A stretch of DNA of 64,000 nt from Anatilimnocola aggregata (GTDB lineage Bacteria > Planctomycetota > Planctomycetia > Pirellulales > Pirellulaceae). The translations under genes were made by a program, and so were the position numbers. Positions 24,503 through 64,000 of this stretch are shown one piece after another (the first letter of the stretch is position 1; each line of letters starts with the position of its first letter). The notes under the pieces were generated by a model. The model did no database searches. It was given only the letters and a program-made list of their open reading frames with translations, and was not told the DNA's origin. Where the stretch lies: positions 62,001 to 126,000 of the forward strand of contig NZ_CP036274.1 of NCBI RefSeq assembly GCF_007747655.1. Reading direction: 5' to 3'.

Positions 24503-24568
24503 GCGATGGCCCATCTGTTGAAACGAATGATGCGACTTCCAGAAAGCACGACAGGAACAGGTAACCAC

Positions 24569-36266: not shown

Positions 36267-37649
36267 ATGAACTTGACACCTTGTAACGGACCATTCTCAC
36301 GGCGGTCGTTTTTGCAAATGGGCGCCCTGGGGGTCGGCGGACTGGGCCTCAGCGACGTGATGCGGGCACGGGCAGCGGCGGGACAAGTGACGGCGGCTCC
36401 GGATACGTCGGTGATCTTCATCTGGCTGGCCGGTGGGCCTTCGCACCTGGAGACCTACGACATGAAGCCGGACGCCCCGGAAGAATACCGGGGGCAGTTC
36501 TCGCCGATTTCAACCAACGTGCCGGGAATGGACGTGTGCGAATTGCTACCGCTGCATGCCAAGTGCGCAGACAAGTACACGCTGATTCGCAGTATCTGCC
36601 ACACGTTCAACGATCACGGCGGCGGGAGTAAGCGTGTGATGACCGGACGCATTCCCGCCACGCCCACGGAAACAGTGAACGACGCGCCGTCCGTCACGTC
36701 CATCGTCGCGAAGATGCGGGAGAAGATCGAAATCGGCTTGCCCAACTGCATTGCTGGCGCGGATGGCGGGCGAGACAGAGTGGATACCTACGCGATGGGC
36801 TCGGCGTATCTGGGACCCAAGTACGTACCGTTCATTTTTGGTGGCGACCCCAGCAGTGCGAAGTTCGAGGTCAAGAACCTGTCCATCAACGCCGAAGTCG
36901 CGGAACGGCTCGATGATCGCATGCAATTGCTCCAAGGGTTTGACCGCCTGCGTCGCGATGTCGATTCCAACAAAGTGTTCTCCTCGATGGACAGCTTTAA
37001 CCAACAGGCGATCAGCCTCATGACCAGCCCGAAGGCTCGCGAGGCGTTCGACCTGTCGCGAGAACCGCAGGCGCTGCGCGATCGGTACGGCAAGCACGCG
37101 TGGGGCCAGCGGGCGTTGCTCGCGCGGCGGCTGGTCGAGGCCGGGTGCAGCTTCGTGACGATGGTCTTCGAGAACCCGAACATCAACGGTTGCTTCTACA
37201 ACTGGGATACGCACGCCGTGAACCACGACCACTTCAAGGACGCGGTCAAACGCAGCCCGGTGTACGACCAGGCTGTGACGGCGCTGATCGAGGACCTGCA
37301 CGAGCGGTCGCTGACAAAGAAGGTGTTGCTTGTCGTCACCGGCGAGTTCGGCCGTTCGCCACGGATCAGCAAGTCGAGCGATGGGCCGAAGGGGATGCGG
37401 TACGGCCGCGAACACTGGCCCCAAGCGATGTCGGTGCTCGTCTGCGGTGGCGGCATGCGGCACGGCCAAGTGGTCGGCGCGACGAACGACAAAGGCGAAC
37501 ATCCCGTCGACCGCCCGCTGACGCCGAACGATCTCTGGGCAACCGTGTACCGCCACCTCGGCATCAACCAGCACGACGCCATTCTCGACTACACCGGCCG
37601 CCCGCAGCACATCTTGCCGTTTGGAGAGCCTATTCGTGAATTGCTGTGA
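36267..37649 (+). CDS. DUF1501 protein
   Basis: The 460-residue protein has a twin-arginine-like N-terminus (SRRSFLQMGALGVGGLGLSD, about 11-30). Family blocks are IWLAGGPSHLETYDMKPDAP, LIRSICHTFNDHGGGSKRVM, YLGPKYVPFIFGG, WDTHAVNHDHF, LVVTGEFGRSPRIS and DLWATVYRHLGINQ. The closest resemblance in this window is to the copies at 45887 and 52102 (shared DTF/ETYDMKP). AGGAG lies 8 bases before the ATG. It is the first gene behind the sigma/FecR pair, 52 bases after it, and starts the long array. Confidence 0.93.
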   Translation: MNLTPCNGPFSRRSFLQMGALGVGGLGLSDVMRARAAAGQVTAAPDTSVIFIWLAGGPSHLETYDMKPDAPEEYRGQFSPISTNVPGMDVCELLPLHAKCADKYTLIRSICHTFNDHGGGSKRVMTGRIPATPTETVNDAPSVTSIVAKMREKIEIGLPNCIAGADGGRDRVDTYAMGSAYLGPKYVPFIFGGDPSSAKFEVKNLSINAEVAERLDDRMQLLQGFDRLRRDVDSNKVFSSMDSFNQQAISLMTSPKAREAFDLSREPQALRDRYGKHAWGQRALLARRLVEAGCSFVTMVFENPNINGCFYNWDTHAVNHDHFKDAVKRSPVYDQAVTALIEDLHERSLTKKVLLVVTGEFGRSPRISKSSDGPKGMRYGREHWPQAMSVLVCGGGMRHGQVVGATNDKGEHPVDRPLTPNDLWATVYRHLGINQHDAILDYTGRPQHILPFGEPIRELL

Positions 37650-37671
37650 CGCCCATGCTGCAACGCATTCG

Positions 37672-39951
37672 ATGAAAGTCATCATCACTATCACCGTCGC
37701 TTTCGTGCTCGCGTTGCTTGTTCCTGTCTGCGCAGACGCCCAGGAGCCAACCGACGCGAAGTTCGTCGAAGTCTTTCTGCAGACTCACTGCGTCCGTTGC
37801 CACAACGCAGACAAGAACAAAGGCGAGTTGAATCTTGACGATCTTGGAACGAATCTGGCTGCGGGGCGTGCCAGTTTCGCGGCTGCGTTGGAGCGGTTGG
37901 AAGCGGGAGATATGCCGCCCAAGGACGAACCCCGGCCCGACCCGACCGCTGTCCGTCGCGTGACAAAGTGGTTGCAACAAGGACTTGACGCATTGCCGGC
38001 CGCGCCGGTTGATAAGGATAAGGCAGCAGTCCGGCCTGACGAAGGAAACCATCTTCCGCACGCCCAGTTGTTCGGCGGCAAGCCCGGCCCGAGCGTGCCG
38101 CCGCCGCCGCGACTGTGGCGGCTTTCGCCCACAGGTTATTCGGCGGGATTCCTCCGGTCCCTGCGGGTTAAAGCTGGCAACATCTCCCAACCGTTTGCGC
38201 TGCGTTCCGACCCCGGCATCAAAGACTATTCGGCTTTGTATTGGCTCGACGAGGGTAGCACCGACTTGCTTATCCGGAACGCCGAGAAAATCGTGGGCGC
38301 GATCACCAGCCACAAATTGTCTACAAACGGAGGCTCGGTTCGGGCTTCGATGGCCAGATCTGGAGGCCAGGCCCAGGCCTTCGAGGAGTTCGCTCCACTG
38401 CTGCATCCGACGGTCGCTCCGAAGAGGGAACAACTCGAAACCGCCATCCGCGTGCTCTATCGGAATGCCCTGGTGCGTGAGCCATCGGCCGATGAAACCG
38501 AGTCGCTGATTCAGCTTTACCACGAGGCTTCCAAGTCGCCCGGGGACCCGGTCTCCGCCAGCAAAACGATGCTCATGGCACCGCTCCTCTCGCCAGAGGT
38601 ACTGCACCGCTTCGAGATCGGTCGCGGAGCCGAGGTGCGGCCGGGCGTTCGCATGCTTTCGCCGGACGAACTTGCCTTCGCGCTCAGTCTGGCTTTCTCG
38701 GGCGAGCGCGAGCCGAGGCTTTTCGCGGCCGCCGCGTCTGGCGGACTCAAGACGCGCGAAGACGTCGAGAAACATGTTCGACGCATCCTCGATGACCCTG
38801 AAGTTTACAAGCCGCGCATTCTCGGGTTCTTCCAGGAATACTTCGGCTACGACCGAGCCCCCGAGGTCTGCAAGGACGCCCAGCCCGACTACGTCCACAA
38901 CGCCGATCAGTTGGTCCTCGATACGAACATGCTTGTGTTGAGCATCCTGGAGAAAGACCAGAACGTGCTCAAGGAACTGCTTACCACGCCCAAGTCGTTT
39001 GTGAATGGTGTCAAGATGACAAGAGATGGCGCAAGCGTGGGACTTGGGGGTGACACGAGCTTAACTAAAGTACTATCCCAGAGTATGGCCTCGAAGATTG
39101 GGTACTCCGCAACGGACAAACTGGCAACGTCCAAACGCCCGAAAGACAAGAGCAAAGATGGCGTCGAGGCCGCCTACGGGCTGAAGGAATGGCCGGCCAG
39201 TCAGCCGGTCGACCTGCCAGGCGACCGCATCGGCATCCTGATGCAACCGAGTTGGCAGGTCGCCTGGTCGTCGAACTTCTTCAATGACCCCGTGCGCCGC
39301 GGACTCTGGATTCGGGAACATCTGCTGGGCCACTCCGTGCCGCAAGTTCCGGTCGGCGTCGTCATTGTGCTGCCCGACGATCCAACACAGACTCTGCGTC
39401 AGCGAATGCAGATCACCAAAGATCAGAAGTGCTGGAGTTGTCATCAGAAGATTGATGACTTGGGATTCCCATTCGAGGCTTTCGACCACTTCGGCCGCCC
39501 TCGTGACGTCGAGAAGCTGGCCGACGACGCGGCGATTGCCAAGAACAAAGCCAACGCCAGCCGGCAGTATGTCAAAGGCGAGAAGAGGCCCGAGAAGATT
39601 CCCGAGTATCGCGAGTTGCCGTTCGACAGCACGGGAATAATCTACGCCAGCGGCGATCCGAAGCTCGATGGCCCCGTTAAGAACGCCCAGGAATTGATCC
39701 GCCGACTGGCTGAGTCAGACCGTGCGCGGCAGGTCTTCATCCGCTACGTCTTCCGCTATTTCATGGGCCGCAACGAGACGGTCGGCGACGGTGCCACACT
39801 GCAAGAGGCTGACAAGGCCTACGTCGAAAGCGGCGGCAGCTTCAAGGGACTGGTCGTGTCGCTGTTGACTTCAGAAGCATTCCTCTATCGAACCTTACCT
39901 GTCCAACCAAACAAGCAAGCCGCCAACTCCCCAGCAAAACCCGCACGCTAA
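37672..39951 (+). CDS. Cytochrome c-like DUF1592/1588-type protein, RLWRLSP lineage
   Basis: The 759-residue protein has a signal peptide (about 1-24), CVRCH at 40-44 (NADKNKGELNLDDL), EAGDMPPKDEP, and a second heme site CWSCH at 587-591 with QKIDDLGFPFEAFDHFG. In place of the usual RLTRxEY DUF1587 start it has PPPRLWRLSPTGY, also found in the proteins at 48365 and 55063. The DUF1592-like core contains ALSLAFSGEREPRLFAAA and VLSILEKDQNVLKELLTT. The C-terminus (RQVFIRYVFRYFMGRNETVG) is DUF1585-like. The ATG at 37672 gives the signal peptide; an earlier in-frame start overlaps the DUF1501 gene. DUF1552 follows 12 bases later. Confidence 0.91.
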   Translation: MKVIITITVAFVLALLVPVCADAQEPTDAKFVEVFLQTHCVRCHNADKNKGELNLDDLGTNLAAGRASFAAALERLEAGDMPPKDEPRPDPTAVRRVTKWLQQGLDALPAAPVDKDKAAVRPDEGNHLPHAQLFGGKPGPSVPPPPRLWRLSPTGYSAGFLRSLRVKAGNISQPFALRSDPGIKDYSALYWLDEGSTDLLIRNAEKIVGAITSHKLSTNGGSVRASMARSGGQAQAFEEFAPLLHPTVAPKREQLETAIRVLYRNALVREPSADETESLIQLYHEASKSPGDPVSASKTMLMAPLLSPEVLHRFEIGRGAEVRPGVRMLSPDELAFALSLAFSGEREPRLFAAAASGGLKTREDVEKHVRRILDDPEVYKPRILGFFQEYFGYDRAPEVCKDAQPDYVHNADQLVLDTNMLVLSILEKDQNVLKELLTTPKSFVNGVKMTRDGASVGLGGDTSLTKVLSQSMASKIGYSATDKLATSKRPKDKSKDGVEAAYGLKEWPASQPVDLPGDRIGILMQPSWQVAWSSNFFNDPVRRGLWIREHLLGHSVPQVPVGVVIVLPDDPTQTLRQRMQITKDQKCWSCHQKIDDLGFPFEAFDHFGRPRDVEKLADDAAIAKNKANASRQYVKGEKRPEKIPEYRELPFDSTGIIYASGDPKLDGPVKNAQELIRRLAESDRARQVFIRYVFRYFMGRNETVGDGATLQEADKAYVESGGSFKGLVVSLLTSEAFLYRTLPVQPNKQAANSPAKPAR

Positions 39952-41330: not shown

Positions 41331-42158
41331 ATGATCTCCCGACAAGATCTACATCGCGCCGCCGCCCTGGCGGCCTTCGTGCTGCTTGGCGGGCACCACT
41401 CGGCTCACGCGCAGGAACCGAAGCCGATGTCGCTCACGGTCGAGCAGGCGAAGGAAATCGTTGCCGGCAAAAACGTCGAATTGCTCCAAAGCGTTACCGA
41501 ACTGAGCGTGGACGTGGCGCAGGTCCTCAGTCAGTACGGCAAGGGTGATCTCCGTCTCCATCGCGTGCAGACGATCACACCGGAGGTTGCCAGGGTGTTA
41601 GCTCCCGAGAAAAAAGGAGTTACGCTCTGGCTCGGTCTGACGACCGTCACGCCGGAAGTTGCCACAGCGCTGGCCGCGCACTCCCGCGGGATGCTCGCCC
41701 TTAACGCCTTGGACAAGATATCCGTGGAAGTGGCCAGGGAACTCTCCCAGTTCCGAGGCAAGCTCACGCTCAATGGGCTTCGCACCCTTTCGCGAGAAGT
41801 CGCCATCGAACTGGCGAAGCACCGCAGTAAATTCACGCTCTTTGGCCTGACGGAGATTTCCGACGAAGCCGCCGAAGCGCTATCCCACCACCGCTCGACG
41901 ATGCTTCTCAACGGACTGACGAAATTGACCTCCGTACCGTTGACTACCACGATGCTGAAATCGAACGATGGCTTTCTCAACCTGTCCAAAGTCCAGACCC
42001 TCGGCGACGAAGTGATGCAGGTATTCGCGGAATACCGCGGAACGAAACCGATTCGACTTACCGGATTAACCGAGCTTTCCGCGGCGAATGCAGTTGGCCT
42101 CCGGGCGAATGACAAAATCGTCCTCCCATCGATATTTCAACAGGCTGAACAACAGTGA
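41331..42158 (+). CDS. Exported Leu-rich repeat protein (planctomycete LNGL repeats)
   Basis: This 275-residue protein has a signal peptide (about 1-28) followed almost entirely by about nine copies of a 20-24-residue repeat. The unit is roughly LxLxGLxxLSxEVAxxLAxHxx; examples are LTLNGLRTLSREVAIELAKH and FTLFGLTEISDEAAEALSHH. The pattern suggests a strand-helix solenoid like leucine-rich repeats, probably for binding. The same unit forms the N-terminal half of the cytochrome at 48365. No enzyme domain is present. AAGGA precedes the ATG. It is embedded between a cytochrome/DUF1552 pair and a nuclease-like gene, 11 bases from the former. Confidence 0.85.
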   Translation: MISRQDLHRAAALAAFVLLGGHHSAHAQEPKPMSLTVEQAKEIVAGKNVELLQSVTELSVDVAQVLSQYGKGDLRLHRVQTITPEVARVLAPEKKGVTLWLGLTTVTPEVATALAAHSRGMLALNALDKISVEVARELSQFRGKLTLNGLRTLSREVAIELAKHRSKFTLFGLTEISDEAAEALSHHRSTMLLNGLTKLTSVPLTTTMLKSNDGFLNLSKVQTLGDEVMQVFAEYRGTKPIRLTGLTELSAANAVGLRANDKIVLPSIFQQAEQQ

Positions 42159-42826: not shown

Positions 42827-44212
42827 ATGCACAATCCACTGAAAATGATCACGCCCACCCAACTTGAACGGCGGTCCGTTCTCAAGGGCATCACACTCGG
42901 GGCCGGGGCCGTCGTGTTGGAGCCGTTCCTGCAACGGCTCGCGGCCGAGCAAGCCGGGCAGGCACCGCCGAAGCGGGTCGTGTTCTTCCTGGAAAGCAAC
43001 GGCCTATATCCTCGCCACGTTCAGCCCAATGGAGTGGACCCGAAATCGTCCGGGAAGCTCGTCGACCTGCCGCTCGCCGATCTGGAATTGAATGAGGCGA
43101 TCGAGCCGCTGACGCCGTTCAAGAATCGCCTGGGGCTGATCCAAAAGCTCTCGCACAAGATTTCCGGCGGCGGCGATCACGGCAAAGGCTACGGCGGGCT
43201 GGGCTGCTTCCACTGGCGACGAGGGATCGCCGGCCAAACCATCGACCACGCGCTCGCCTCGGCCCAACCGAACATCATTCCGGTGCTCGGGCTGGGCGTG
43301 CCACCTTCCGCAGACGCAGCGTTCGTCAACTCGGTCTCGGCCAGTGGTCCCCGCCGGCCGACCCCCATGATCTGTCAACCGGATCTCGCCTTCCGGATGC
43401 TGTTCGGCAGCGTCGCGGAAGGGGACGCGAGGCGTCAGTTTCAGGCGCGGAACAAGCTGCTGGACTGGTGCCGTTCCGACATCAAGCGCGTCCAGAACGA
43501 GTTGCCCGCGATGGACCGCGAGAAGCTCGATGTCTACCTGGACACCTTCGAGCAGATGCGTACCCGCCAAGACCGCATCAATGACAACCGCGATCTGCTC
43601 CAGGCCAATCTGCCGGCGATCAACAAGTTCGAGACCCAACGGACGACGCAGCGGTTCGAGGCACAATGTGCGATCGCCACGGCTTCTCTCGCGTCGGGGC
43701 TCACGAATGTGGTGACGATCGATGCGGCGGGCGGCATCGGCCAGTATCACACCTGGAAGGAACTCGGCGTCACCAAGGACGGCCATGCGATCGGCCACTC
43801 GGCCGATGCACCCGACAGCGTGAAGTTCGCCATTGCGATTCGCCGCTTCCATGCAGAGCGTGTCGCCGACCTGGCCCGCCGCCTGGATGCGGTGAAAGAA
43901 GGCAACGGAACGATGCTCGACAACACGCTGATTGTCTGGATGAGCGACTCGGGCGAGGGACATCACGGCTTCTGTGGCGAATGGCCGTTGATCTTGGTCG
44001 GCGGTCTGGGAGATCGGCTGAAGACGTCCGGCCGGTTCCTGCAATTCCCCGGATATCAGGAGGACGCGAAGGAAACGGCAAACCGGACCATTCGCAACTT
44101 TTACCTCTCTCTGCTCCACGCCGTGGGTGACAAGCGCGAGCAGTTCGGCGAACTGGATTCGAAAATGCCCGCCGCCGCTCAAGCCGGCCCGCTGGCGGAG
44201 ATCTTGGCATGA
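42827..44212 (+). CDS. DUF1552-family protein, divergent HXXSHH motif
   Basis: The 461-residue protein begins MHNPLKMITPTQLERRSVLK, followed by GITLGAGAVVLEPF, an export signal almost identical to that of the gene at 59110. The motif position reads HAIGHS (320-325). Other blocks are FKNRLGLIQKLSHKISGGGD, MLFGSVAEGDARRQF, DNTLIVWMSDSGEGHHGF and a C-terminal LLHAVGDKREQFGELD, then PLAEILA. The ATG at 42827 follows AAAGG. It has no cytochrome immediately before it; instead it is coupled by four bases (ATGA) to a DUF1549/DUF1553 gene, a different pairing from the rest of the window. Confidence 0.92.
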   Translation: MHNPLKMITPTQLERRSVLKGITLGAGAVVLEPFLQRLAAEQAGQAPPKRVVFFLESNGLYPRHVQPNGVDPKSSGKLVDLPLADLELNEAIEPLTPFKNRLGLIQKLSHKISGGGDHGKGYGGLGCFHWRRGIAGQTIDHALASAQPNIIPVLGLGVPPSADAAFVNSVSASGPRRPTPMICQPDLAFRMLFGSVAEGDARRQFQARNKLLDWCRSDIKRVQNELPAMDREKLDVYLDTFEQMRTRQDRINDNRDLLQANLPAINKFETQRTTQRFEAQCAIATASLASGLTNVVTIDAAGGIGQYHTWKELGVTKDGHAIGHSADAPDSVKFAIAIRRFHAERVADLARRLDAVKEGNGTMLDNTLIVWMSDSGEGHHGFCGEWPLILVGGLGDRLKTSGRFLQFPGYQEDAKETANRTIRNFYLSLLHAVGDKREQFGELDSKMPAAAQAGPLAEILA

Positions 44213-45867
44213 TCCATTACACGGGCGAACAATATATGCTTCTAAAGCGAATCTTGGTCGGGTTATTCGTCGCGTTGGCAGGGCTGACCCCCGAGTCGGT
44301 GCGAGCCGAAAATATCAGTCTGCGCGACGTGATCGATCGCGAAGTCAAAGCAAGCTGGGAAAAGGAAAAACTCGCGCCGCCCGCGCGTTCGTCCGATGTC
44401 GTGTTCCTGCGGCGCATCTACCTCGATCTCATCGGCATGATCCCGAGCTACGAGGAAACGACGACGTTTCTCAACGACAGCGATCCGCAGAAACGCGAAA
44501 AACTGATCGACTTGTTGTTGGCCGATGCGCGTTACGCTCGCCAGCAGGCCCAGGTGTGGGACCTCGCCATGCTGACCCGCAATCAAAAAGTGGTCGAAGG
44601 GCAGGTTGGTTATCGCAATCGCGGCAGGTTCCGCCAGTGGCTGGCCCAGCAGTTCGAGACCAACGAACCCTACGACCGCATCGCCGCCAAAATTCTCCAG
44701 GCAGAGGAAGAAGGTTCGCAGCTCTATTTCGCCGTGTACAACGGCACGGACGAGATGGTCAACGCGGTCTCGCGATTCTTCCTCGCCACGCAAATTCAGT
44801 GTGCCAAGTGCCACAACCATCCGTACGAGTCCTGGACGCAGAAGGACTACCACGGCTTGGCCGGCTTCTTCGTCCGCACCATGTCCGTGGAAGTTCCGGG
44901 GAAGCCTGAGATCACCAATCAAAAGGGCAAACAGTACCTGGTTGGCGAGAAGACGGTCGGCGAAGCACTGTTTTCGCTCGAAGAAATCGACCCCAAAACC
45001 AAGAAGAAGCAAACGATCCCCATCAAGCCGAAGTTTCTCACCGGCGATGAGCTGACGGAACCAGAACCGCCCAAGGATTACGTCGAACCGAAACTGAAGC
45101 CGGGTGAACTGCCGCCGAAGCCGTCGTTTTCGCGGCGCGAGAAGTTCATTGAATGGATGACGGCAAAGGACAATCCATTCTTCGCGAAGGCACTGGCGAA
45201 TCGCGTGTGGGCTCAGTTCATGGGACGCGGCTTCGTGCATCCGGTCGACGATTTCAACTCGTCCAACACGCCGAGCCATCCCGAGTTGCTCAGGGCGGTC
45301 GAGACCGAGTTGGTGGCCCACAAGTTCGACTTGAAGTGGCTGATTCGCGAAATCGTCAACAGCGAGTCCTATCAGGCGGCTGACGTCGGCGAGGTGACCG
45401 ATGCGATGCCGAAGTTCTACGAGCGCGCCAGGATTCGTCCGCTGACCGTCGAAGAGCTGACGTCGTCGCTGCACATTGCCATGGGGCTTGGAGTCGAATC
45501 CGCCCTCAAGACCGAACCGAGCAAGGATCTGTTGCAATACCTAGGCGAACCAACCGATGGCCAGGGGAGATTCCAAGGGAGCCTGTCGGAGCATTTGTTC
45601 CTGCACAACGGCGACGTTTTCCGCGGCCTGTGCCGGCCCAACAAAGGGAACTTGTCCGAGAAGCTGGTCACAGGCACCGAGGATTGGAATGAAAAGGTCG
45701 AGCGCATGTTCCTATCCGTCCTAAGCCGGCCAGCCACAAGCGAGGAGCGCGAGCGATTCGTCCAGTACCTGAGCGTGGAGGAGAAGGACCCGAAGCTGAA
45801 GGGGCAACGCATGGAAGACGCGCTGTGGGTGTTGGTTTCAGGTTCTGAGTTTCGGTTTAATCGATAG
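44209..45867 (+). CDS. DUF1549/DUF1553 protein without PSCyt1 domain
   Basis: The 552-residue exported protein has a hydrophobic N-terminus (about 10-31) and then DUF1549 (about 40-250: FLRRIYLDLIGMIPSYEETT) with a single heme-type site CAKCH at 198-202 in CAKCHNHPYESWTQKDYHGL. DUF1553 follows (about 300-550: ALANRVWAQFMGRGFVHPVD, RPLTVEELTSSLHIAMG, FLSVLSRPATSEERERF). Unlike the 855-residue protein at 17974, it lacks the N-terminal PSCyt1 heme domain and the coiled coil. The ATG at 44209 overlaps the DUF1552 stop; Met10 (44236) would give a tidier signal peptide. DUF1501 follows 19 bases later, a common pairing for this family. Confidence 0.93.
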   Translation: MIHYTGEQYMLLKRILVGLFVALAGLTPESVRAENISLRDVIDREVKASWEKEKLAPPARSSDVVFLRRIYLDLIGMIPSYEETTTFLNDSDPQKREKLIDLLLADARYARQQAQVWDLAMLTRNQKVVEGQVGYRNRGRFRQWLAQQFETNEPYDRIAAKILQAEEEGSQLYFAVYNGTDEMVNAVSRFFLATQIQCAKCHNHPYESWTQKDYHGLAGFFVRTMSVEVPGKPEITNQKGKQYLVGEKTVGEALFSLEEIDPKTKKKQTIPIKPKFLTGDELTEPEPPKDYVEPKLKPGELPPKPSFSRREKFIEWMTAKDNPFFAKALANRVWAQFMGRGFVHPVDDFNSSNTPSHPELLRAVETELVAHKFDLKWLIREIVNSESYQAADVGEVTDAMPKFYERARIRPLTVEELTSSLHIAMGLGVESALKTEPSKDLLQYLGEPTDGQGRFQGSLSEHLFLHNGDVFRGLCRPNKGNLSEKLVTGTEDWNEKVERMFLSVLSRPATSEERERFVQYLSVEEKDPKLKGQRMEDALWVLVSGSEFRFNR

Positions 45868-45886
45868 CATCACCAAGGGGAAGTCG

Positions 45887-47176
45887 ATGATTACAAACTT
45901 TCAAGCGGGCATGTGTAACACGGGCCACCACCTGAACCGTCGTTCGCTGATGAAGGGGCTGCTCACCACGGCTGGTGGAATGGCCGTCGCGAACTGGGGC
46001 GCGCTGACCCATTCACAATCGATCGCCGCGGAGGCGAAGCGCTCCGGCAAACGCTGCATCATGCTCTACATGGGTGGCGGCGTGAGCCAAATCGATACCT
46101 TCGACATGAAGCCGGGGCGGCCGACCGGCGGTGAGTTCCGCCCAGTCCAGACCAAGGTGCCCGGCATTCACGTCTGCGAATTCCTGCCGAACATCGCCCG
46201 CCACGCCGACAAGCTCGGCATCATTCGCAGCATGCGGACGAAAACGCCCGATCACGGCCCCGGCGGCTATTACATGCACACGGGCTATCATCCGAACGAA
46301 AAATTTCCGCATCCTGAAGTCGGCGCGATGGTCGCCAAGTACTGCGAAAACCCGGAGAGTGATCTGCCAAGCTTCGTCAAGATCGGTAGCGGTAGCGGCG
46401 TGTACGGCGCCGGGTATCTTGGTCCGCAGTACGAACCGTTCGTGGTGGCGGAAGATGGCAAGGTTCCCTCCTTCGTCAACCCGAGCTTGTCGCCAGAGAT
46501 TCAGGGCCGGCGCGGTGAGTTGCTGAGCTTTATGGAACAGCGCTTTGCCGAGCAGCGTCCCGGCGAACCGTTCGCCGCTCATCGCTCGGCGGAGCTACGC
46601 ACGATTCGCCTGATGCGAGCCCGCCAGACGTTCGACGTCGGCGCCGAATGGGAGAAAGCCAAGGACCGCTACGGCGACAGCAAGTTCGGTCGCGGTTGTT
46701 TCACGGCGATGAAGCTCGTCGAGGCCGGCGTATCGTTCGTGGAGGTTGGGCATGATGGGCACGACACCCACATGGACAACTTTCCAATCTCCAAGGCGCT
46801 TTATTCGACCTTGGATCCTGCCTGGGGTTCGCTGCTGGAAGATCTGACGCAGCGTGGCCTGCTACAAGACACGTTGGTCGTGTGGACAAGTGAGTTCGGC
46901 CGCACGCCGGCGATCAACGTCCGAGCCGGCCGCGATCACTTTGGCCGAGCGTGGACGGTCGTTTTGGCTGGCGGCGGCATCAAAGGGGGCCAGCACTACG
47001 GTTCCAGCGACCGCGATGGTTTCGAGGTCGCGGAGAATCCGGTCAGCGAAGCGGACTACTTGGCGACCATCTACAAGACTATGGGTGTTGACCATCGCGC
47101 CCAGCACTTCCTTGGCGCCCGCCCGATCTGGGCCACACCGGAAGGCTCCAAGCCAATTATGGAATTGATTGGGTAG
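45887..47176 (+). CDS. DUF1501 protein
   Basis: The 429-residue protein has an NRRSLMKGLLTTAGGMAVAN export-type start (about 17-36). Family blocks are MLYMGGGVSQIDTFDMKPGR, IIRSMRTKTPDHGPGGYYMH, YLGPQYEPFVV, EVGHDGHDTHMDNF, LVVWTSEFGRTPAINVRAGR and DYLATIYKTMGVDHRAQHFL. It is the classical partner of the DUF1549/DUF1553 gene just upstream. AAGGGGA lies before the ATG. The activity is unknown, though the superfamily suggests metal-dependent ester or sulfate chemistry. Confidence 0.94.
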   Translation: MITNFQAGMCNTGHHLNRRSLMKGLLTTAGGMAVANWGALTHSQSIAAEAKRSGKRCIMLYMGGGVSQIDTFDMKPGRPTGGEFRPVQTKVPGIHVCEFLPNIARHADKLGIIRSMRTKTPDHGPGGYYMHTGYHPNEKFPHPEVGAMVAKYCENPESDLPSFVKIGSGSGVYGAGYLGPQYEPFVVAEDGKVPSFVNPSLSPEIQGRRGELLSFMEQRFAEQRPGEPFAAHRSAELRTIRLMRARQTFDVGAEWEKAKDRYGDSKFGRGCFTAMKLVEAGVSFVEVGHDGHDTHMDNFPISKALYSTLDPAWGSLLEDLTQRGLLQDTLVVWTSEFGRTPAINVRAGRDHFGRAWTVVLAGGGIKGGQHYGSSDRDGFEVAENPVSEADYLATIYKTMGVDHRAQHFLGARPIWATPEGSKPIMELIG

Positions 47177-47226: not shown

Positions 47227-48342
47227 ATGAATGACTTCGCGACTTCCAAACTCCTGTTCACGCTGTCCTGGAACAGCGACGTGGTTTTCGCCGTCACGTT
47301 CATCGGCAGCGACAAAGTCGCGGCCGCCAACCGACGCGGCGACATCCTGATCTGGGACCTCCCAGCGTCCGGCGACAAGAGCCCCGATCCGGTTCGACGG
47401 CTGGTCGGACACACCAGCGCGGTCAATCGCCTTCGGCTAAGTCCCGACGGCAAGACGCTGATTTCCGCGAGCACCGATCGCACCGTGAAATTCTGGGACG
47501 CACTCCAGAGCGACGGCGAACCCGGCACGATCGTGATGAACGACGGCTACTCGTTCGTGGGCGTCACGGAGAAGGTCGACAAGCTTCCGGCTCCGCCGCC
47601 ACCGATTACCGTGAAGGTCGTCGAGCAGAAGCCGATCCGTGAATTTACGGGCCATAAGGATTGGATCTGGGGGCTAGGCATTTCCGCAGACGGCAAATCG
47701 TTGGCCACCGGCGACGACTCGAAATGGGTCGTACTCTCGGACCCACAGACGGGCACCGAACAGCGCCGTTGGCAGGTGAACCAATGGATTCGCTCGCTCG
47801 ACATCTCGCCCGACGGCCAGGTCGTGGTAACGGCGGAGCACTTCCCGCATACGAACAACAACTTTGTCGAGGCCGGCCTGCGCGGCTGGGACGCCCAGAC
47901 GGGCAAGATGAAGTTTGATGCCAGCAAATTGCTGAAGAGTGGTGTGAACTCAGTTCGGTTCTCCGAGGACGGAAAACATCTGGCAGTCGGTGTAGGCCAC
48001 ATTGACCGCGACGGAGACAACGGCAAGGTGTTTCTGCTCAACCCCACGACCGGCGAGAAAGTTCGCGAACTGACTCCGTCGCATCTACGAGGGGCCACCG
48101 ATTTGGCCTTCCACCCGGACGGCGAGCACCTCTTCACTTGCGGCCGCGATCGAATGGTAAAGATCTGGCGCCTCAGCGATGGCGGGCAGGTACATGAAAT
48201 CAACCAATCGCTCCAGGACAAGGCTAAACAGGGCCCATTCACTCCCACGCTCCACGCGATTTCGATCTCTCCTGACGGGAAACTGTTGGCCGTTGCCGAT
48301 GCCGAAAGAAAAGTTGTGATCTATTCGCTGACATCCACGTAA
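47227..48342 (+). CDS. WD40-repeat beta-propeller protein
   Basis: The 371-residue protein contains seven recognisable WD40 blades, enough for one complete propeller. Examples are VGHTSAVNRLRLSPDGKTLI then TVKFWD, TGHKDWIWGLGISADGKSLA, and TDLAFHPDGEHLFTCGRDRM then VKIWRL. No signal peptide is visible, in contrast to nearly all neighbours, so it may stay in the cytoplasm as a scaffold, although the start could be mis-set. WD40 genes often sit beside DUF1549/DUF1501 genes in planctomycetes. AGGAGA precedes the ATG; it lies 50 bases after the DUF1501 gene and 22 before the repeat-cytochrome gene. Confidence 0.9.
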   Translation: MNDFATSKLLFTLSWNSDVVFAVTFIGSDKVAAANRRGDILIWDLPASGDKSPDPVRRLVGHTSAVNRLRLSPDGKTLISASTDRTVKFWDALQSDGEPGTIVMNDGYSFVGVTEKVDKLPAPPPPITVKVVEQKPIREFTGHKDWIWGLGISADGKSLATGDDSKWVVLSDPQTGTEQRRWQVNQWIRSLDISPDGQVVVTAEHFPHTNNNFVEAGLRGWDAQTGKMKFDASKLLKSGVNSVRFSEDGKHLAVGVGHIDRDGDNGKVFLLNPTTGEKVRELTPSHLRGATDLAFHPDGEHLFTCGRDRMVKIWRLSDGGQVHEINQSLQDKAKQGPFTPTLHAISISPDGKLLAVADAERKVVIYSLTST

Positions 48343-48364: not shown

Positions 48365-51300
48365 ATGATCCTGCGGGCCTGTGTTTTCAGTTGGTTCTGT
48401 TTTTGTGTCTTCTGTGTTGGCTCGCTCGATGCGAATGACACGCAGCAGCTTCAACAACTCACGGTCGAAGAGTCCCAAAGGCTGACGCAAGACAAGTCGG
48501 GGCGGCTGTTGCTCGACGGACTGAAGACGCTGTCGCCCAAGGTGGCGAACGAACTGGCGAAGCACGAAGGTTGGCTGTCGCTCAACGGGCTGACGGAAAT
48601 TTCGAACGAGGCCGCCGCGGCGCTCGGACAGCACAAGGGTTGTCTGCATTTGAATGGGTTGACCAAGGTTTCCGATGAGGCGTCCAAGTCGATCGCTGGC
48701 CATCGGGGCGAGTTGTCGCTCAACGGGCTGACTTCGATCTCGGACGAAGCGGCAAAGGCACTCGCCAAACACTCCGGCGGGCGGTTGATGTTGAAAGGGC
48801 TGACGACGCTTACGGGCGAAGCGGGCAAGGCGTTCGCACAGCGCAAAGGGGGCGGGCCGATGAATCAGATCACCCTCGATGGCCTGACCTCCATGACGCC
48901 CGAGGCGGCTGCGGCGCTGGCGGAAACCCATGGTCACAACTGGCGGGGAGAACTGCCCGCATTCAAATCGATTTCGGTCGAAGTGGCCCAGGCGTTGGCG
49001 AAGCGGCAAGGAGGGCTGTCGATGCCGGAGCTGACCACGCTCTCGGACGACGCAGCCAAGGCACTGCAAGGAAAACTGGGAGGCAATCTGCCGCGATTGA
49101 CGTCACTCACCGTCGAGAGTGCGAAGGCGATCGCTGGACCCATCCCAGGACAATTCCATCGCACGCTCAATCTTGATGGCCTCACGTCGCTGCCCGACGA
49201 GATTGCCCTGGCCATCGGTGGCAAAGACAGCCGCGGCAACCTGTACCTTAATGGCCTTAAGTCCCTCACTCCGCTCGCGGCGAAAGCGATCTGCCAGCGC
49301 GAAGGCGATCTGTATCTCAACGGGCTGACCACGATCTCCGATGAAACGCTCAAGGCGCTGGCCGAGCATAAGGCTCCAGGCTATGCCCGGCCCATCGTTC
49401 ATCTCCACGGTTTGACCAGTCTCTCCGACGACAGCGCCATGATCTTGGCGGCGTGGCCCAAGTGGAGCGGCGAACTTCCTAAGCTGCCGACGCTCTCGGA
49501 GAAGACCGCCGTGGCACTGGCAGCCTCGCGGAAATGGGATGGAAAACTGCCGGCGGTGAAGTCGATCTCGGGCGAATCGGCCCAGGCGATCGCGCAGCGA
49601 AACGGCAACCTCGCGCTCGATGGGCTGACGACGCTCACCGAAGACGTTGCGGCGGCGCTGGCGAAACACCAGGGCGGCACGCTGTCGCTCAACGGACTGA
49701 AGGAACTGTCGGACAAAGCCGCGGCAGCGTTGGCTGAGCATGAGGGGAGACTCTCGCTCCGTGGACTGACAACGCTTTCCAGCGGCGCGGCCCAGGCACT
49801 CGCCGGGTACAAGGGGGACTGGCTGATTCTGGACGGTTTGCAGACGCTCGACGACCCGGCGGCGAAGTCGCTCGCACAGCGCAAAGGAGTGGTCTCCTTG
49901 GCTGGTCTGAATACCATTTCCGCAGAGGGGACCAAGGCGCTAACCGCCAACCCCAAAGTGGTGATTCCTGCAAAGTTCCACGCGCTGGCCGTCCGCCAAG
50001 GCGTCGTCGCCGATGAAAAAGTCGTGCGGTCGTTTCTCTCGTCGCACTGTGCCGACTGCCACGATGGCGGCGAGCAGGAAGGCGAATTCGCGCTCGACAG
50101 GTTGGCGAACGACAATGTCGTTGGCCGGGTAGCATTCGCCTTGATCTTCGAGCGGCTCCGCGCAGGCGACATGCCGCCGCCGTCCGAAGCGCGACCGAAG
50201 GCCGACGATGTGGACAAGGTCGTTTCCTGGATCCAAGCAAGACTCGACTCGCCGCTCAGCACGCCGCCCGTTCCGTATGCTGTCAAGGAAAAACCGATCG
50301 ACGGCAACCGGCTCCCGAACGCGATTCTCTTCGGCGGACCGCGCGGACCGAGCGTGCCGCCGCCGCCGCGACTCTGGCGGCTTTCCCCTTCGGCCTACAA
50401 CAAGTGGACTGGCGAGTTCAACTCCCAGACCAACGGGCTGCAGCAGCCGTTCGGCGTGATTCAGGAGGCCGGCTTCAAGGATTTCTCCGCCCTCTACTCG
50501 CCCGATGAAGGGGCCTCCGGCCTGCTGCTCACGAATGCCGAGTTGATAGTGGCGGGCCAGACTCGCGTGCATACACTGGTGAACGTCAACGACCCGGCAT
50601 TTGCGAAGGAAACCCTCTGGCCGAATGAGGCGCGGGCGAAAGCGGCCACCGCCGCCGAACAAGAGGCGCTCAAGTCGGGCGTGCGTGTGCGTCAGGGCAA
50701 TGGCGTTTTCGCCCCGCTGCTGCACCCGCAGGTGAAGGCGACTCGCGAGGAATTGGAAAAGGCGATTCGGCAGCAATACCAGACCGCTGTGGCCCGCCTG
50801 CCCAGCGAGCAAGAATTGGCGAGCGTGGTCGCACTCTACGACGCCATCGCCGCCGACGGGGATTGCTCGATTGCCGGCAAGACGGCACTGATGGCCCCGC
50901 TGATGACGCCGGAGGCGATTTTGCGGTTCGAAGTCGGATTGGGGCCTGAGGTGCTTCCGGGCGTTCGCTCGCTCTCGCCGCGCGAGACGGCGATGGCGAT
51001 CAGCCTGGCTTTGTCGACGAAGCGCGACCCCGGCCTGTTGTCGGCCGCCGCCGAAGGCAAGCTGACGACGCGCGAGGAGGTCGCGGCGAGCGTCCGTCGC
51101 ATCCTCGACGATCCAAAACTCAGCAAGCCGCTGGTGCTTGGATTCTTCCGCGAGTACTTCGATTACTACCGTGCTCCCGAGGTCTTCAAAGACCCACTCC
51201 CCGATTACCTGGGGCGACGCGGCATCAGTCACAACCCCAAGTCCTACGTCGAAGATACCGATGTAATGGTGCTGAGCATTCTGTCTCGCGACCAAGACGT

Positions 51301-52105
51301 GCTGAAGGAACTTCTCACCACGCCCGAGTCGTATCGCACGCACGAGCTGTTTGGCGTGAACGGTACGCTCGACGGACTCCGCAACGGCGAGTCCCTGTTT
51401 CGCGCGTTCGGCCCGGTGGCGGTGGAACACCGCCGTCCGCAAAGTGATCGCATCGGCATCCTGATGCAGCCGAGTTGGCATGTGGCCTGGTCGACCAATT
51501 TTCATAACGACATCGTCCGCCGCGGCCGCTGGGTGCGCGAGCATCTGCTGGGAGGTCGCGTTCCCGATCTGCCGATCAACGTGGCGGCGATGGTCCCCGA
51601 TGATCCGCACCGCACGCTGCGCCAGCGACAGATGGTCACGCGCGCCGGTGAGTGCTGGAAGTGCCACAACAAGATGGACGAACTCGGCCTGCCGTTCGAA
51701 GACCTCGACCACTACTCCTTGCCCCGTCGTGGTGAAGAGGTGCTCGACCTCGAAGCAATGGAACAGACCAAGGACAAGAACCAGAAGATCTACCGCGAGG
51801 CGCCGCTCGATACGACCGGCACGATCGCCTACAGCGGCGACCCCGCGATTGACGGTCCGGTCCGTGACGCGCCCGAGATGCTCCGCCGCCTCGCCGAGTC
51901 CGACCGTGTGCGACAGATCTTCATCCGCCACGTCTTCCGTTTTTTCCTTGGCCGCAACGAAACGCCCGGCGACGCCGCCAGTCTGCAAGAAGCTGAAAAA
52001 GCCTATCTCGATAACGGCGGCAGCTTCAAGGCACTGCTCGTGTCGCTGTTGTCATCCGAGTCCTTTCTATACCGAACAGTCCCTACCCAAGGAAGCCAAC
52101 CATGA
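48365..52105 (+). CDS. Leu-rich-repeat/cytochrome c-like fusion protein
   Basis: The 1246-residue exported protein joins two modules. After a signal peptide (about 1-23), residues 33-525 hold 20 copies of a repeat of about LxLNGLTxLSxEAAxALAxH, the unit that makes up the stand-alone protein at 41331. From about 545 it is a cytochrome of the RLWRLSP lineage: CADCH at 562-566, AGDMPPPSEARP, PPPRLWRLSPSAYNKW, a DUF1592-like core (MAISLALSTKRDPGLLSAAA), and CWKCH at 1097-1101 with NKMDELGLPFEDLDHY. A DUF1585-like end completes it. The repeats probably provide a binding surface that positions the heme module. The stop overlaps the following DUF1501 start (ATGA). Confidence 0.92.
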   Translation: MILRACVFSWFCFCVFCVGSLDANDTQQLQQLTVEESQRLTQDKSGRLLLDGLKTLSPKVANELAKHEGWLSLNGLTEISNEAAAALGQHKGCLHLNGLTKVSDEASKSIAGHRGELSLNGLTSISDEAAKALAKHSGGRLMLKGLTTLTGEAGKAFAQRKGGGPMNQITLDGLTSMTPEAAAALAETHGHNWRGELPAFKSISVEVAQALAKRQGGLSMPELTTLSDDAAKALQGKLGGNLPRLTSLTVESAKAIAGPIPGQFHRTLNLDGLTSLPDEIALAIGGKDSRGNLYLNGLKSLTPLAAKAICQREGDLYLNGLTTISDETLKALAEHKAPGYARPIVHLHGLTSLSDDSAMILAAWPKWSGELPKLPTLSEKTAVALAASRKWDGKLPAVKSISGESAQAIAQRNGNLALDGLTTLTEDVAAALAKHQGGTLSLNGLKELSDKAAAALAEHEGRLSLRGLTTLSSGAAQALAGYKGDWLILDGLQTLDDPAAKSLAQRKGVVSLAGLNTISAEGTKALTANPKVVIPAKFHALAVRQGVVADEKVVRSFLSSHCADCHDGGEQEGEFALDRLANDNVVGRVAFALIFERLRAGDMPPPSEARPKADDVDKVVSWIQARLDSPLSTPPVPYAVKEKPIDGNRLPNAILFGGPRGPSVPPPPRLWRLSPSAYNKWTGEFNSQTNGLQQPFGVIQEAGFKDFSALYSPDEGASGLLLTNAELIVAGQTRVHTLVNVNDPAFAKETLWPNEARAKAATAAEQEALKSGVRVRQGNGVFAPLLHPQVKATREELEKAIRQQYQTAVARLPSEQELASVVALYDAIAADGDCSIAGKTALMAPLMTPEAILRFEVGLGPEVLPGVRSLSPRETAMAISLALSTKRDPGLLSAAAEGKLTTREEVAASVRRILDDPKLSKPLVLGFFREYFDYYRAPEVFKDPLPDYLGRRGISHNPKSYVEDTDVMVLSILSRDQDVLKELLTTPESYRTHELFGVNGTLDGLRNGESLFRAFGPVAVEHRRPQSDRIGILMQPSWHVAWSTNFHNDIVRRGRWVREHLLGGRVPDLPINVAAMVPDDPHRTLRQRQMVTRAGECWKCHNKMDELGLPFEDLDHYSLPRRGEEVLDLEAMEQTKDKNQKIYREAPLDTTGTIAYSGDPAIDGPVRDAPEMLRRLAESDRVRQIFIRHVFRFFLGRNETPGDAASLQEAEKAYLDNGGSFKALLVSLLSSESFLYRTVPTQGSQP

Positions 52106-53469
52106 CCGCCAAGAAAGAGAGCCACTTGTGGGACGGTTTCCACCGGCGAACGATTCTCCAAATCGGCGCCGTCGGCGTTTGTGGATTGACTTTGGCGGAT
52201 TTCTTGCGAGCCGACACTCGCTCGGCGCTAGATTCTTCGTATCGCAAGCGATCGATCGTGAACGTCTGGCTGGCCGGCGGCGCGTCGCACCTGGACACGT
52301 TCGATATGAAGCCGGATGCCCCGGCGGAATTTCGTGGGGAATTCGAGTCGATCGCCACCCGGATTCCGGGCGTGCGGATTTGCGAGCATCTGCCGCGCAT
52401 CGCCGAGAGACTGGACCGCATGGCCCTCATTCGCTCGCTCACCGGTATGGTCGACTCGCATGACGGCGCGATGAACGCCACGGGCTGGCCGCCGGGCAAC
52501 ATGAAAAACCTCGGCGGACGCCCGAACATCGGCTCCGTCGTGTCCAAACTGCAGGGGCCCACGAACGGCAATGTGCCCACGGCCGTGGCCATGATCTCCG
52601 GGTACAACCCCAGCGAGCAGGCGTATTTTCGCTCGGCCGGGTTTCTGGGCCCGGCCTTCGACTGCTACACACCGGACAGCGAAGATGGGCGGGCCAACCT
52701 GACTGCGCGTCTCATCACACAGGACCGCCTGAGTCTTTTGACGAGATTGGACACATTGCGTCGAGACTTGGATGCCCGCGGCAATATTCAAGCGATGGAT
52801 GCTTACACCGAGCGGGCCGTGCAGTTCGTGACTTCCCGCGAGTTCGCGGATGCGCTCGACATTACCCGCGAACCGCCGGCCGTGCGGCAACGCTATGGCA
52901 TCGGCGTCGATTACCGGAGTCGCGGTGCACCATTAGCGAAATCGAATCTTGGCCAGCAAAACGCCCGGTTTCTTATGGCTCGCCGGTTGATCGAATGCGG
53001 AGCACGCTGCGTCAATGTGACTTGGGAAGAGGGCGCTGCGCGGCGGTGGGACACTCACCAAGACAACTTCAATGCCCTGCGCAATGAACTGTTGCCCCCG
53101 TTCGACATCGGCCTCAGCGCCTTTTTCGACGATCTCGAATCCCGCGGCATGTTGGAAGATGTCCTCGTGCTGGTGTGGGGCGAGTTCGGTCGTACACCGC
53201 GAATCAACAAGGATGCTGGACGCGACCACTATGCGCCCGCCGCCTCAGCGCTCCTGTTCGGCGGCGGACTCAAGGTAGGCCAGGTGATCGGTAGCACGAC
53301 CCGCAACGGCGATCTGCCAGCCGATCGACCGATCCAATTCCAGCAGATGTTCGCCACGCTTTATCGACACCTCGGTATCGATCCGGTGCAAGCCACGCTG
53401 GTGGATACAAACAACCGGCCGCAGTACCTGATTACACATACCGATTCGATCCGTGAACTGACTGGGTAA
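52102..53469 (+). CDS. DUF1501 protein
   Basis: The 455-residue protein is coupled to the repeat-cytochrome gene by ATGA. The N-terminus (HRRTILQIGAVGVCGLTLAD, about 14-33) is twin-arginine-like. Family blocks are NVWLAGGASHLDTFDMKPDA, LIRSLTGMVDSHDGAMNATG, SAGFLGPAFDCYTPDS, RWDTHQDNF, LVLVWGEFGRTPRINKDAGR and MFATLYRHLGIDPVQATLVD. Direct coupling to the fusion protein suggests the two products are needed in similar amounts. Confidence 0.93.
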   Translation: MTAKKESHLWDGFHRRTILQIGAVGVCGLTLADFLRADTRSALDSSYRKRSIVNVWLAGGASHLDTFDMKPDAPAEFRGEFESIATRIPGVRICEHLPRIAERLDRMALIRSLTGMVDSHDGAMNATGWPPGNMKNLGGRPNIGSVVSKLQGPTNGNVPTAVAMISGYNPSEQAYFRSAGFLGPAFDCYTPDSEDGRANLTARLITQDRLSLLTRLDTLRRDLDARGNIQAMDAYTERAVQFVTSREFADALDITREPPAVRQRYGIGVDYRSRGAPLAKSNLGQQNARFLMARRLIECGARCVNVTWEEGAARRWDTHQDNFNALRNELLPPFDIGLSAFFDDLESRGMLEDVLVLVWGEFGRTPRINKDAGRDHYAPAASALLFGGGLKVGQVIGSTTRNGDLPADRPIQFQQMFATLYRHLGIDPVQATLVDTNNRPQYLITHTDSIRELTG

Positions 53470-62896: not shown

Positions 62897-64000
62897 ATGC
62901 GAACCCTATCCGTCTTGTGTTGCCAGTTTACTTCGTTGATTGTCGGTGTCTACCTCATCGCGGTCACGGCCTCGGGTGCCGAACCCGGTTCAGATCGGGG
63001 GAGCGTCCAGGAAATCAAAAATAGCGTGGGGATGAAACTCCTGTTCATCCCGCCGGGAAAGTTCTTGATGGGCTCGCCGGAAAGCGAACCCGGTCGCGAG
63101 GCTCAAGAGGTCCAGCACGAGGTGGAACTGACGAAGGGGTTTTACCTGGGAACGCATGAAGTCACATTCGGCCAGTTCAAGCAATTCGTCGCCGACACGA
63201 ATTACCAGACCGAAGGCGAGCGCGACGGCAAGGGGGCCTACGGCGCCAACGAGGCGGGCAAGATCGAAGAGATGCACGCCCGGTTCACCTGGAAAACCCC
63301 TGGGTTCGAGCAGACCGACGAACATCCGGTGGTCGATGTGTCGTGGCAGGATGCCAAAGCGTTTTGTAATTGGCTGAGCGAAAAGGAGAAGAAGACCTAT
63401 CGCTTGGCGACCGAAGCCGAATGGGAATATGCGTGTCGCGCCGGCACGAAGACGGCGTACGTGCATGGCGACGATCCCGAAGGCTTGGCGACCGTGGGCA
63501 ACGGAGCCGACGCTACGGCGCGAGCCAAGTTTCCCGGCTGGTCCATCGGCATCCAGGGGAAGGACGGGCACCTCTTCACGGCCCCGGTGGGCCAATTCAA
63601 AGCGAACGCCTTCAGCCTGTATGACATGCACGGCAATGTGTGGGAGTGGTGCGAAGACTGGTACGTGCCGAACAGCCATCCCCAAGAAAAGCAGATCGAT
63701 CCGACTGGGCCAGCGACAGGCAAAGCCAAAGTGCAACGCGGCGGCGGTTGGTCGAGCGACTCAAAGCGCCTGCGATCCGCAGCTCGCGTTGGTCGCGATC
63801 AATCGGCCTATCGCGGCTGCTACCTCGGCTTTCGCGTGGTCCTGGAGCAATCGCCGGCCGAGGCTCCCAAGGAATCGGGAACTGCTGCGGAAAAACCCGC
63901 CGGAGGGCGCGTGGCCTACATGCTGCTCGTCAACGGCGCGGTGACCGATGCCGTCGTCAAGGCCGCAAATATCGAAGGACATAGGTCCGTCGTTGCTCCT
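62897..64000 (+). CDS. SUMF1/formylglycine-generating-enzyme-like exported protein, 3' end beyond window
   Basis: The frame is open from the ATG at 62897 to the window edge (368 residues). A signal peptide (about 1-32) precedes a SUMF1/FGE-sulfatase fold: MKLLFIPPGKFLMGSPESEP, YLGTHEVTFGQFKQFVADTN, HPVVDVSWQDAKAFCNWLSE, TYRLATEAEWEYACRAGTKT, LYDMHGNVWEWCEDWYVPNS, RGGGWSSDSKRLRSAARVGR and GFRVV. The paired cysteines of true formylglycine-generating enzymes are not present in the RGGGW segment, so a different role (binding or regulation) is likelier than sulfatase activation. A further domain starts after a linker (about 325-340) and is cut off. The SD is weak. Confidence 0.9.
   Translation, partial: MRTLSVLCCQFTSLIVGVYLIAVTASGAEPGSDRGSVQEIKNSVGMKLLFIPPGKFLMGSPESEPGREAQEVQHEVELTKGFYLGTHEVTFGQFKQFVADTNYQTEGERDGKGAYGANEAGKIEEMHARFTWKTPGFEQTDEHPVVDVSWQDAKAFCNWLSEKEKKTYRLATEAEWEYACRAGTKTAYVHGDDPEGLATVGNGADATARAKFPGWSIGIQGKDGHLFTAPVGQFKANAFSLYDMHGNVWEWCEDWYVPNSHPQEKQIDPTGPATGKAKVQRGGGWSSDSKRLRSAARVGRDQSAYRGCYLGFRVVLEQSPAEAPKESGTAAEKPAGGRVAYMLLVNGAVTDAVVKAANIEGHRSVVAP

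What the first reader, a model, noticed from the sequence alone, without database searches (positions are those of the whole stretch)
48365..52105. Cytochrome fused to twenty Leu-rich-type repeats
About 490 residues of a repeat LxLNGLTxLSxEAAxALAxH are fused in frame to a two-heme RLWRLSP-type cytochrome. The arrangement suggests a solenoid binding surface that brings a redox module to a large substrate, cell wall or partner. I do not recognise this domain combination.
Basis: partly seen in the sequence, partly recalled or inferred. Interest (0 to 1): 0.72.

Follow-up and report, generated by a model that had tools for sequence, protein, structure and literature searches.

The report
Leucine-rich-repeat arm on planctomycete cytochrome
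A planctomycete bacterium carries a conserved, probably secreted protein in which twenty leucine-rich repeats are joined to a planctomycete-type cytochrome with two heme motifs; the repeats probably act as a docking arm, and the protein is a new variant of a known but functionally unexplained cytochrome family.

Summary
Window 48365-52105 (+) is one 1,246-aa ORF: putative signal peptide, 20 units of mostly 23 residues (residues 48-535), then PSCyt1 (CADCH), PSD4/DUF1592, PSCyt3/DUF1588 (CWKCH) and PSD2/DUF1585. The fusion is conserved: 16 distinct fused ORFs were found, two of them in this genome; their cytochrome halves group together (100/100) and the repeats are under purifying selection. 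AlphaFold models the repeats alone at pLDDT 91.6, and fold and profile searches point to leucine-rich-repeat (LRR) proteins, FBXL2 or ribonuclease inhibitor first. It is a divergent LRR that no Pfam LRR model recognises, joined to several other domains in planctomycetes. An unfused repeat gene lies in the same window; in a relative one sits 19 bp upstream of an unfused homologue of the cytochrome. The fusion's stop overlaps an ATG (ATGA) in 12 of 13 loci with an intact end; in 9 that ATG starts a DUF1501- or DUF1552-like gene. Best reading: an exported diheme cytochrome with an LRR docking arm, working with that neighbour. Partner, ligand and redox chemistry are inferred. PSCyt proteins with other interaction domains are published: a new variant of a known kind.

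The parts
48365..52105 (+). LRR-PSCyt fusion gene, 1,246 aa
   Evidence: ORF; Pfam; 15 other distinct fused homologues
48365..48436 (+). putative Sec signal peptide, residues 1-24 (inference from the hydrophobic N terminus; no predictor was run)
   Evidence: translation; similar hydrophobic N termini in L021-L023
48506..49969 (+). 20 LRR-like units, residues 48-535
   Evidence: AF2 pLDDT 91.6 for residues 25-543; LRR matches
50048..50182 (+). PSCyt1 domain with heme motif CADCH (residues 562-566)
50369..50389 (+). RLWRLSP motif, residues 669-675; invariant in the four fusions; R-L-W-R and the final P invariant in all 18 rows of A3, three unfused homologues included
50972..51349 (+). PSD4 / DUF1592, residues 870-995
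51449..51715 (+). PSCyt3 / DUF1588 with second heme motif CWKCH (residues 1097-1101, bases 51653-51667)
51860..52066 (+). PSD2 / DUF1585, residues 1166-1234
52102..52105 (+). ATGA overlap of the fusion's stop with the next gene's start
   Evidence: ATGA in 12 of 13 distinct loci with an intact C terminus
52102..53469 (+). DUF1501 gene whose start overlaps the fusion's stop
47227..48342 (+). WD40 protein gene directly upstream
44209..47176 (+). PSCyt2/PSD1 gene (44209-45867) and DUF1501 gene (45887-47176), upstream in the same order as at L021, L022 and L023
41331..42158 (+). stand-alone protein of the same repeat, 275 aa, 8 units, hydrophobic N terminus
37621..39951 (+). unfused homologue of the cytochrome half (48% identity over 749 columns), in the group nearest to the fused ones

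Best explanation
A divergent LRR solenoid, of a kind that still exists as a separate protein next to PSCyt genes, became joined, most simply once, to the front of a PSCyt1/PSCyt3-type cytochrome with two heme motifs (one ORF and one group in the tree: shown). The product is exported, carries two c-type hemes, and works with the DUF1501- or DUF1552-type protein encoded by the overlapping next gene (inferred). The LRR is a docking arm that holds the redox half against a protein partner, most likely that DUF1501/DUF1552 protein or another protein of the same island (inferred; a polymer ligand is the main rival).
For: Fused in one ORF in 16 distinct genes: window, L021, L022, L023, L026-L036, L083. 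On one side of a 100/100 branch against 10 unfused rows; the nearest unfused group holds window 37621. Repeat dN/dS 0.16-0.30 and cytochrome 0.10-0.22 over 10 comparisons with the window gene. Unit order kept: 219 of 280 units match best at the same index. Repeat model pLDDT 91.6, pTM 0.82; best VIA matches FBXL2 Z 18.0, rmsd 6.8, 322 aligned, and RipG4 LRR Z 18.0, rmsd 6.3, 330 aligned; the repeat profile finds FBXL2 first among PDB sequences, E 1.7e-4. Split version: LRR gene 19 bp upstream of an unfused homologue of the cytochrome (L025). ATGA at the fusion's stop in 12 of 13 loci; in 9 the overlapping gene resembles DUF1501 or DUF1552 window genes. In the four held genomes known to have a fusion, each divergent-repeat locus at E<=0.001 is either fused to a CxxCH protein or inside a PSCyt cluster: 3 of 3 in G000, 6 of 6 in G020 (a seventh, weak hit is a canonical-looking LRR), 3 of 3 in G080, 1 of 1 in G368.
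Against: No binding, heme or activity data. Conservation does not single out the usual concave LRR face: mean identity is 0.58 at strand position 2 but 0.73-0.80 at positions 20, 22 and 23 (0.53 at 21; the Gly at 22 may be structural). Trp 70, 193, 364, 367 and 486, invariant in 15 of 15 fusions, would also suit a sugar ligand. At L021 the overlap is absent and no DUF1501/DUF1552-like gene was seen downstream in the 2.8 kb held; at L033 the DUF1501-like ORF starts 15 bp after the stop, so its ATGA may be chance. L038 shows a repeat start not followed by the cytochrome. Most of the cytochrome half models poorly, so the orientation of the halves is unknown. The same repeat is joined to unrelated domains elsewhere, so it is not specific to redox proteins.
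Confidence: 0.5

Rival explanations
1. The LRR arm binds a polymer (sulfated or other polysaccharide, or cell wall) and delivers the redox module to it, like a carbohydrate-binding module.
For: PSCyt proteins with CBMs and with sulfatase neighbours are reported (PMC5615132, passages); five Trp invariant in 15 of 15 fusions, at or near the loops between units; an LRR-FGE fusion lies in a G020 PSCyt cluster and an FGE gene at the end of the window.
Against: No glycan-binding family matched the repeats credibly (LRR_EndoS reached E 0.033 at best in 5 of 16 members); LRRs usually bind proteins (general knowledge); no substrate data.
Confidence: 0.27
2. The LRR drives self-assembly or surface attachment, and the cytochrome simply passes electrons on in an assembled layer.
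For: Very long, regular solenoid; two fusion copies each in G000 and G020.
Against: Not testable here; a short stand-alone LRR beside PSCyt genes suggests a partner-type role.
Confidence: 0.13
3. The two halves act as separate proteins after processing.
For: Low-confidence stretches at model residues 517-525 and 539-549 (window residues 541-549 and 563-573), around the junction; unfused versions of both halves exist.
Against: One fused ORF in 16 distinct genes with purifying selection on both halves.
Confidence: 0.06
4. The repeats are histone-fold-like (Pfam TAF) or otherwise low-complexity helices, not an LRR.
For: PF02969 TAF scores 22.1 bits (cut-off 21) on the isolated window repeats and hits 15 of 16 members, best E 2.2e-13.
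Against: In the window protein the best stretch covers only profile positions 17-37 of 66, one helix; in the whole protein TAF is below its cut-off (15.4 v 21); the models alternate strand and helix and match LRR structures.
Confidence: 0.02

Closest known systems
Planctomycete-specific cytochrome (PSCyt1/PSCyt3 + PSD) proteins, e.g. window 37621-39951
   Same: Same domain order PSCyt1-PSD4-PSCyt3-PSD2, two CxxCH, RLWRLSP motif, 48% identity; DUF1501/DUF1552 neighbours
   Different: No N-terminal LRR; the fused ones group apart
PSCyt proteins with CBM or protein-interaction domains (He et al. 2017, PMC5615132; passages and a figure legend seen)
   Same: PSCyt/PSD protein joined to a binding module
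   Different: The modules listed in the legend are Laminin_G_3, Bac_rhamnosid_N, NPCBM, CBM_6, PA14, Big_2, WD40 and F5_F8_type_C; no LRR is named in the passages seen
LRR proteins of the FBXL2 / ribonuclease-inhibitor / RipG type
   Same: Strand-helix solenoid; best fold and profile matches
   Different: About 23-residue unit; the leading Leu of LxxLxLxxN is missing and Leu/Val stands where N or C is usual (the canonical motif is recalled); no Pfam LRR model matches above its cut-off
Single-CxxCH protein + same repeat (L024 twice, L091, L092)
   Same: Same repeat joined to a heme motif in the same bacterial family
   Different: Heme motif N-terminal; no PSCyt/PSD domain found in the two L024 proteins (L091 and L092 were not scanned)

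Membership tests
PSCyt/PSD cytochromes (PSCyt3 group) | PSCyt1 domain with CxxCH | tested here: met
   23.5 bits v cut-off 22; CADCH at 562
PSCyt/PSD cytochromes (PSCyt3 group) | PSD4, PSCyt3 (with CxxCH) and PSD2 in order | tested here: met
   47.4, 74.6 and 47.6 bits, all above cut-off
PSCyt/PSD cytochromes (PSCyt3 group) | PSD5 and PSD3 domains, present in many but not all members | tested here: inconclusive
   PSD5 20.1 bits v 34.2 and no PSD3; window 20556, 25963 and 1213 have both; unfused window 37621 has PSD5 below cut-off and no PSD3
PSCyt/PSD cytochromes (PSCyt3 group) | covalent c-type heme and redox activity | not testable with these tools
   sequence motifs only
Leucine-rich repeat fold | tandem 20-30 residue units, strand then helix, forming a solenoid | tested here: met
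   (predicted, not solved)
Leucine-rich repeat fold | structural similarity to solved LRR proteins | tested here: met
   FBXL2 Z 18.0, rmsd 6.8, 322 aligned; Foldseek E 1.5e-9; but low global TM-scores, 0.20-0.46 by query length in the 50 rows shown
Leucine-rich repeat, named sequence classes | canonical 11-residue LxxLxLxx(N/C)xL (recalled) | tested here: not met
   consensus lacks the first Leu and the N/C position; no Pfam LRR family at E<=0.1 on the whole protein; LRR_EndoS only weakly, 5 of 16 members, best E 0.033

The most novel reading that the evidence does not exclude
Some planctomycetes use a class of divergent LRR proteins as heme-carrying or heme-positioning docking proteins: LRRs fused to PSCyts with two heme motifs, joined separately to a single-CxxCH protein, or encoded beside PSCyt/DUF1552 genes. 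With DUF1501/DUF1552 proteins they form a modular extracytoplasmic redox machine with swappable recognition arms, analogous in logic to polysaccharide-targeted oxidative systems.
Probability: 0.2. Interest if true: 0.66.

Novelty: new variant of a known kind. Interest (0 to 1): 0.42.

Why it matters
[quoted passage not shown] A conserved fusion to a separable, confidently modelled docking domain, plus a split version and an overlapping partner gene, gives a concrete handle: the LRR can be expressed alone and used as bait. The repeat itself is a planctomycete LRR class that no Pfam LRR model recognises and that is joined to kinase, Sel1, FGE, helicase-like and heme-motif proteins.

Tried and rejected
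Pfam TAF on the repeats: rejected as a one-helix coincidence. One search, run up to E 10, also gave scattered hits of unrelated families to some members (Sigma54_activ_2 in 12 of 16, best 1.5e-5; STAS_2 in 8 of 16, best 0.00057; NCBP3 in 5 of 16, best 5.9e-7; and others); they disagree with one another and I take them as repeat-driven chance. Similarity to outer surface protein A (phmmer E 0.29): not significant. NCBIfam and PADLOC: no match to the fusion. No match to the repeat in the plasmid collection. Idea that the array grows or shrinks freely: not supported, since the same scan counted 20 units in 8 and 21 in 2 of the 10 fusions scanned (the other 6 of 16 were not scanned) and unit order is largely kept. 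Idea of a decaying or accidental read-through fusion: rejected by conservation and dN/dS (NG86, with dS above 1 in several pairs, so values are rough).

Limits of the counts: one search scored only 4 candidates per genome, at most 26 and at most 17, so those genome tallies are lower bounds. The tree is rooted at the midpoint only and the tool warned of long branches among the outer rows; the fused rows on one side of a branch do not by themselves prove one origin.
Full report
Observation. The ORF at 48365-52105 (+) encodes 1,246 residues. It has 20 units spaced 22-29 residues (mostly 23) between residues 48 and 535, far above shuffled controls. Pfam finds PSCyt1, PSD4, PSCyt3 and PSD2 in the C-terminal half and nothing credible on the repeats. 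The two CxxCH motifs and RLWRLSP are in the sequence.

The fusion is real and conserved. The same genome holds a second copy (L021, 1,271 aa), and relative G020 holds two (L022, L023). A scan of named genomes gave 13 loci, all metagenome-assembled planctomycetes, some from lakes by their titles. Repeat and cytochrome lie in one ORF in 11 of 13; L037 is cut by a contig end, and in L038 the repeat runs into other sequence after a few units. G080 adds one more (L083); G368's copy is identical to L035. That makes 16 distinct fused ORFs; L026, L029, L030 and L032 are open at a contig or locus end. Their cytochrome halves lie on one side of a 100/100 branch against 10 unfused rows, and the nearest unfused group holds window 37621-39951; the root is the midpoint, and long branches among the outer rows were flagged. 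Against the window gene, dN/dS is 0.16-0.30 in the repeats and 0.10-0.22 in the cytochrome over 10 comparisons. In 14 other fusions, 219 of 280 units match best at the same index. In the family 3 of 241 genomes have a close cytochrome half at E<=1e-130 (5 matches, all in open frames of 1,247-1,411 aa; 4 candidates scored per genome). The same-genus genome G001 had no repeat match. The gene is therefore accessory.

What the repeat is. The isolated repeat region (residues 25-543, 16 sequences) models at mean pLDDT 91.6 and pTM 0.82, with alternating short strands and helices; in the 1,200-residue model (mean 70.7) it is the best part. Foldseek's 50 best PDB rows for it are LRR proteins as far as I recognise their names, apart from 9ijj_4X, which I could not place. 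VIA-align ranks FBXL2 (Z 18.0, rmsd 6.8, 322 aligned) and the RipG4 LRR domain (Z 18.0, rmsd 6.3, 330 aligned) highest; for the long model it ranks ribonuclease inhibitor first (Z 16.1, rmsd 10.2, 367 aligned). TM-scores are modest (0.20-0.46 by query length) and rmsd large, so the overall curvature differs. A profile of four-unit windows finds FBXL2 (E 1.7e-4) and LRR repebodies (E 0.001-0.003) first among PDB sequences. The same profile weakly hits a canonical-looking LRR protein of G020 (E 7.3e-4). The unit lacks the full LxxLxLxxN/C motif, so I call it a divergent LRR-fold repeat and not a member of a named class.

Distribution of the repeat. Matches to the profile occur in 51 of 199 family genomes and 15 of 294 phylum genomes, own genome included. 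Ten repeat proteins were scanned against Pfam: one has Sel1 repeats, one a protein kinase domain, one WD40 with a kinase match below its cut-off, one DUF4011 plus an AAA helicase-type domain, one an FGE domain; five had no family above its cut-off. Other forms are a single-CxxCH protein (L024 twice, L091, L092) and stand-alone proteins, some with lipoprotein-like N termini. The repeat is thus a general planctomycete module. In the four held genomes known to have the fusion, each divergent-repeat locus at E<=0.001 is either fused to a CxxCH protein or lies in a PSCyt cluster: 3 of 3 in G000, 6 of 6 in G020, 3 of 3 in G080 and 1 of 1 in G368; these four were chosen because they have the fusion.

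Surroundings. Upstream lie PSCyt2/PSD1, DUF1501 and WD40 genes, in the same order at L021, L022 and L023 (labels there are by BLAST to window genes, which Pfam named). Downstream, the fusion's stop overlaps an ATG (ATGA) in 12 of 13 distinct loci with an intact C terminus, L021 being the exception. In nine of them (window, L022, L023, L028, L031, L032, L035, L036, L083) the overlapping gene resembles DUF1501 or DUF1552 (for L022 the start was placed from the aligned range). In L033 the DUF1501-like ORF starts 15 bp after the stop, so its ATGA may be chance; L027 holds only 200 bases beyond the stop, too few to tell; in L034 no such gene was seen in the 374 bases held. A DUF1501- or DUF1552-like gene is somewhere in 13 of the 16 fusion loci; L026, L030 and L034 are short contigs without one. 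This fits the published remark that PSCyt2- and PSCyt3-encoding genes usually sit next to each of two families of unknown genes (PMC5615132, passages seen).

Split version. In G020 (L025) a stand-alone repeat gene ends 19 bp before an unfused homologue of the cytochrome half, in the same order as in the fusion. In the window the stand-alone repeat gene 41331-42158 follows a DUF1552 gene and the unfused cytochrome 37621-39951. Genes that are fused in one place and adjacent in another often work together; that is inference.

Mechanism. Shown: one ORF, LRR fold predicted, two heme motifs, stop-start overlap with a DUF1501/DUF1552-like gene. Inferred: export, heme attachment, docking to a protein partner. 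The polymer-binding rival is serious, because related PSCyts carry carbohydrate-binding modules and five Trp are invariant in 15 of 15 fusions. Conservation among 13 fusions is higher at positions 20, 22 and 23 (0.73-0.80; 0.53 at 21) than at strand position 2, which usually faces the ligand (0.58).

Literature. Searches for PSCyt, DUF, planctomycete and LRR terms in the held open-access library listed no paper on an LRR joined to a PSCyt. That library misses most subscription papers, and some lists were capped. Papers were seen as passages only: PMC5615132, PMC5587647 (DUF1501 is often annotated among WD40 gene neighbours in planctomycetes), PMC8567305, PMC2754498, PMC12078418, PMC11495043.

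Verdict. A confirmed, conserved new variant of the PSCyt family with a divergent LRR arm. Moderately interesting, mainly as a handle on a large family of unknown function.

Noticed in passing
window 36267-61787: Island of PSCyt, DUF1501 and DUF1552 genes with WD40, SNase and GFO/IDH/MocA-type genes; a second such group lies at 17974-28521.
   Followed up: partly
window 62897-64000: FGE-sulfatase (formylglycine-generating) domain gene running off the window end; G020 has the LRR repeat fused to an FGE domain (L025 3078-4748).
   Followed up: partly
L024 3993-6599 and 6662-9292; L091 2087-4684; L092 4373-7024: A second kind of heme-motif LRR protein: one CxxCH near the N terminus followed by divergent repeat units (17 and 16 counted in the two of L024).
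   Followed up: partly
L026 835-3582 compared with window 48365-52105: Repeat part nearly identical (dS 0.07) but cytochrome part more diverged (dS 0.39), suggesting recombination or gene conversion between fusion copies.
   Followed up: no
L036 1-399: C-terminal 132 residues of another close homologue of the cytochrome half (72% identity), two genes upstream of the L036 fusion; whether it is fused cannot be seen.
   Followed up: no
window 34433-36214: Protein with FecR and Laminin_G_3 domains at the edge of the island.
   Followed up: no
L038 333-2534: Repeat array that begins like the fusion but leaves it after a few units; real truncation or assembly chimera.
   Followed up: no
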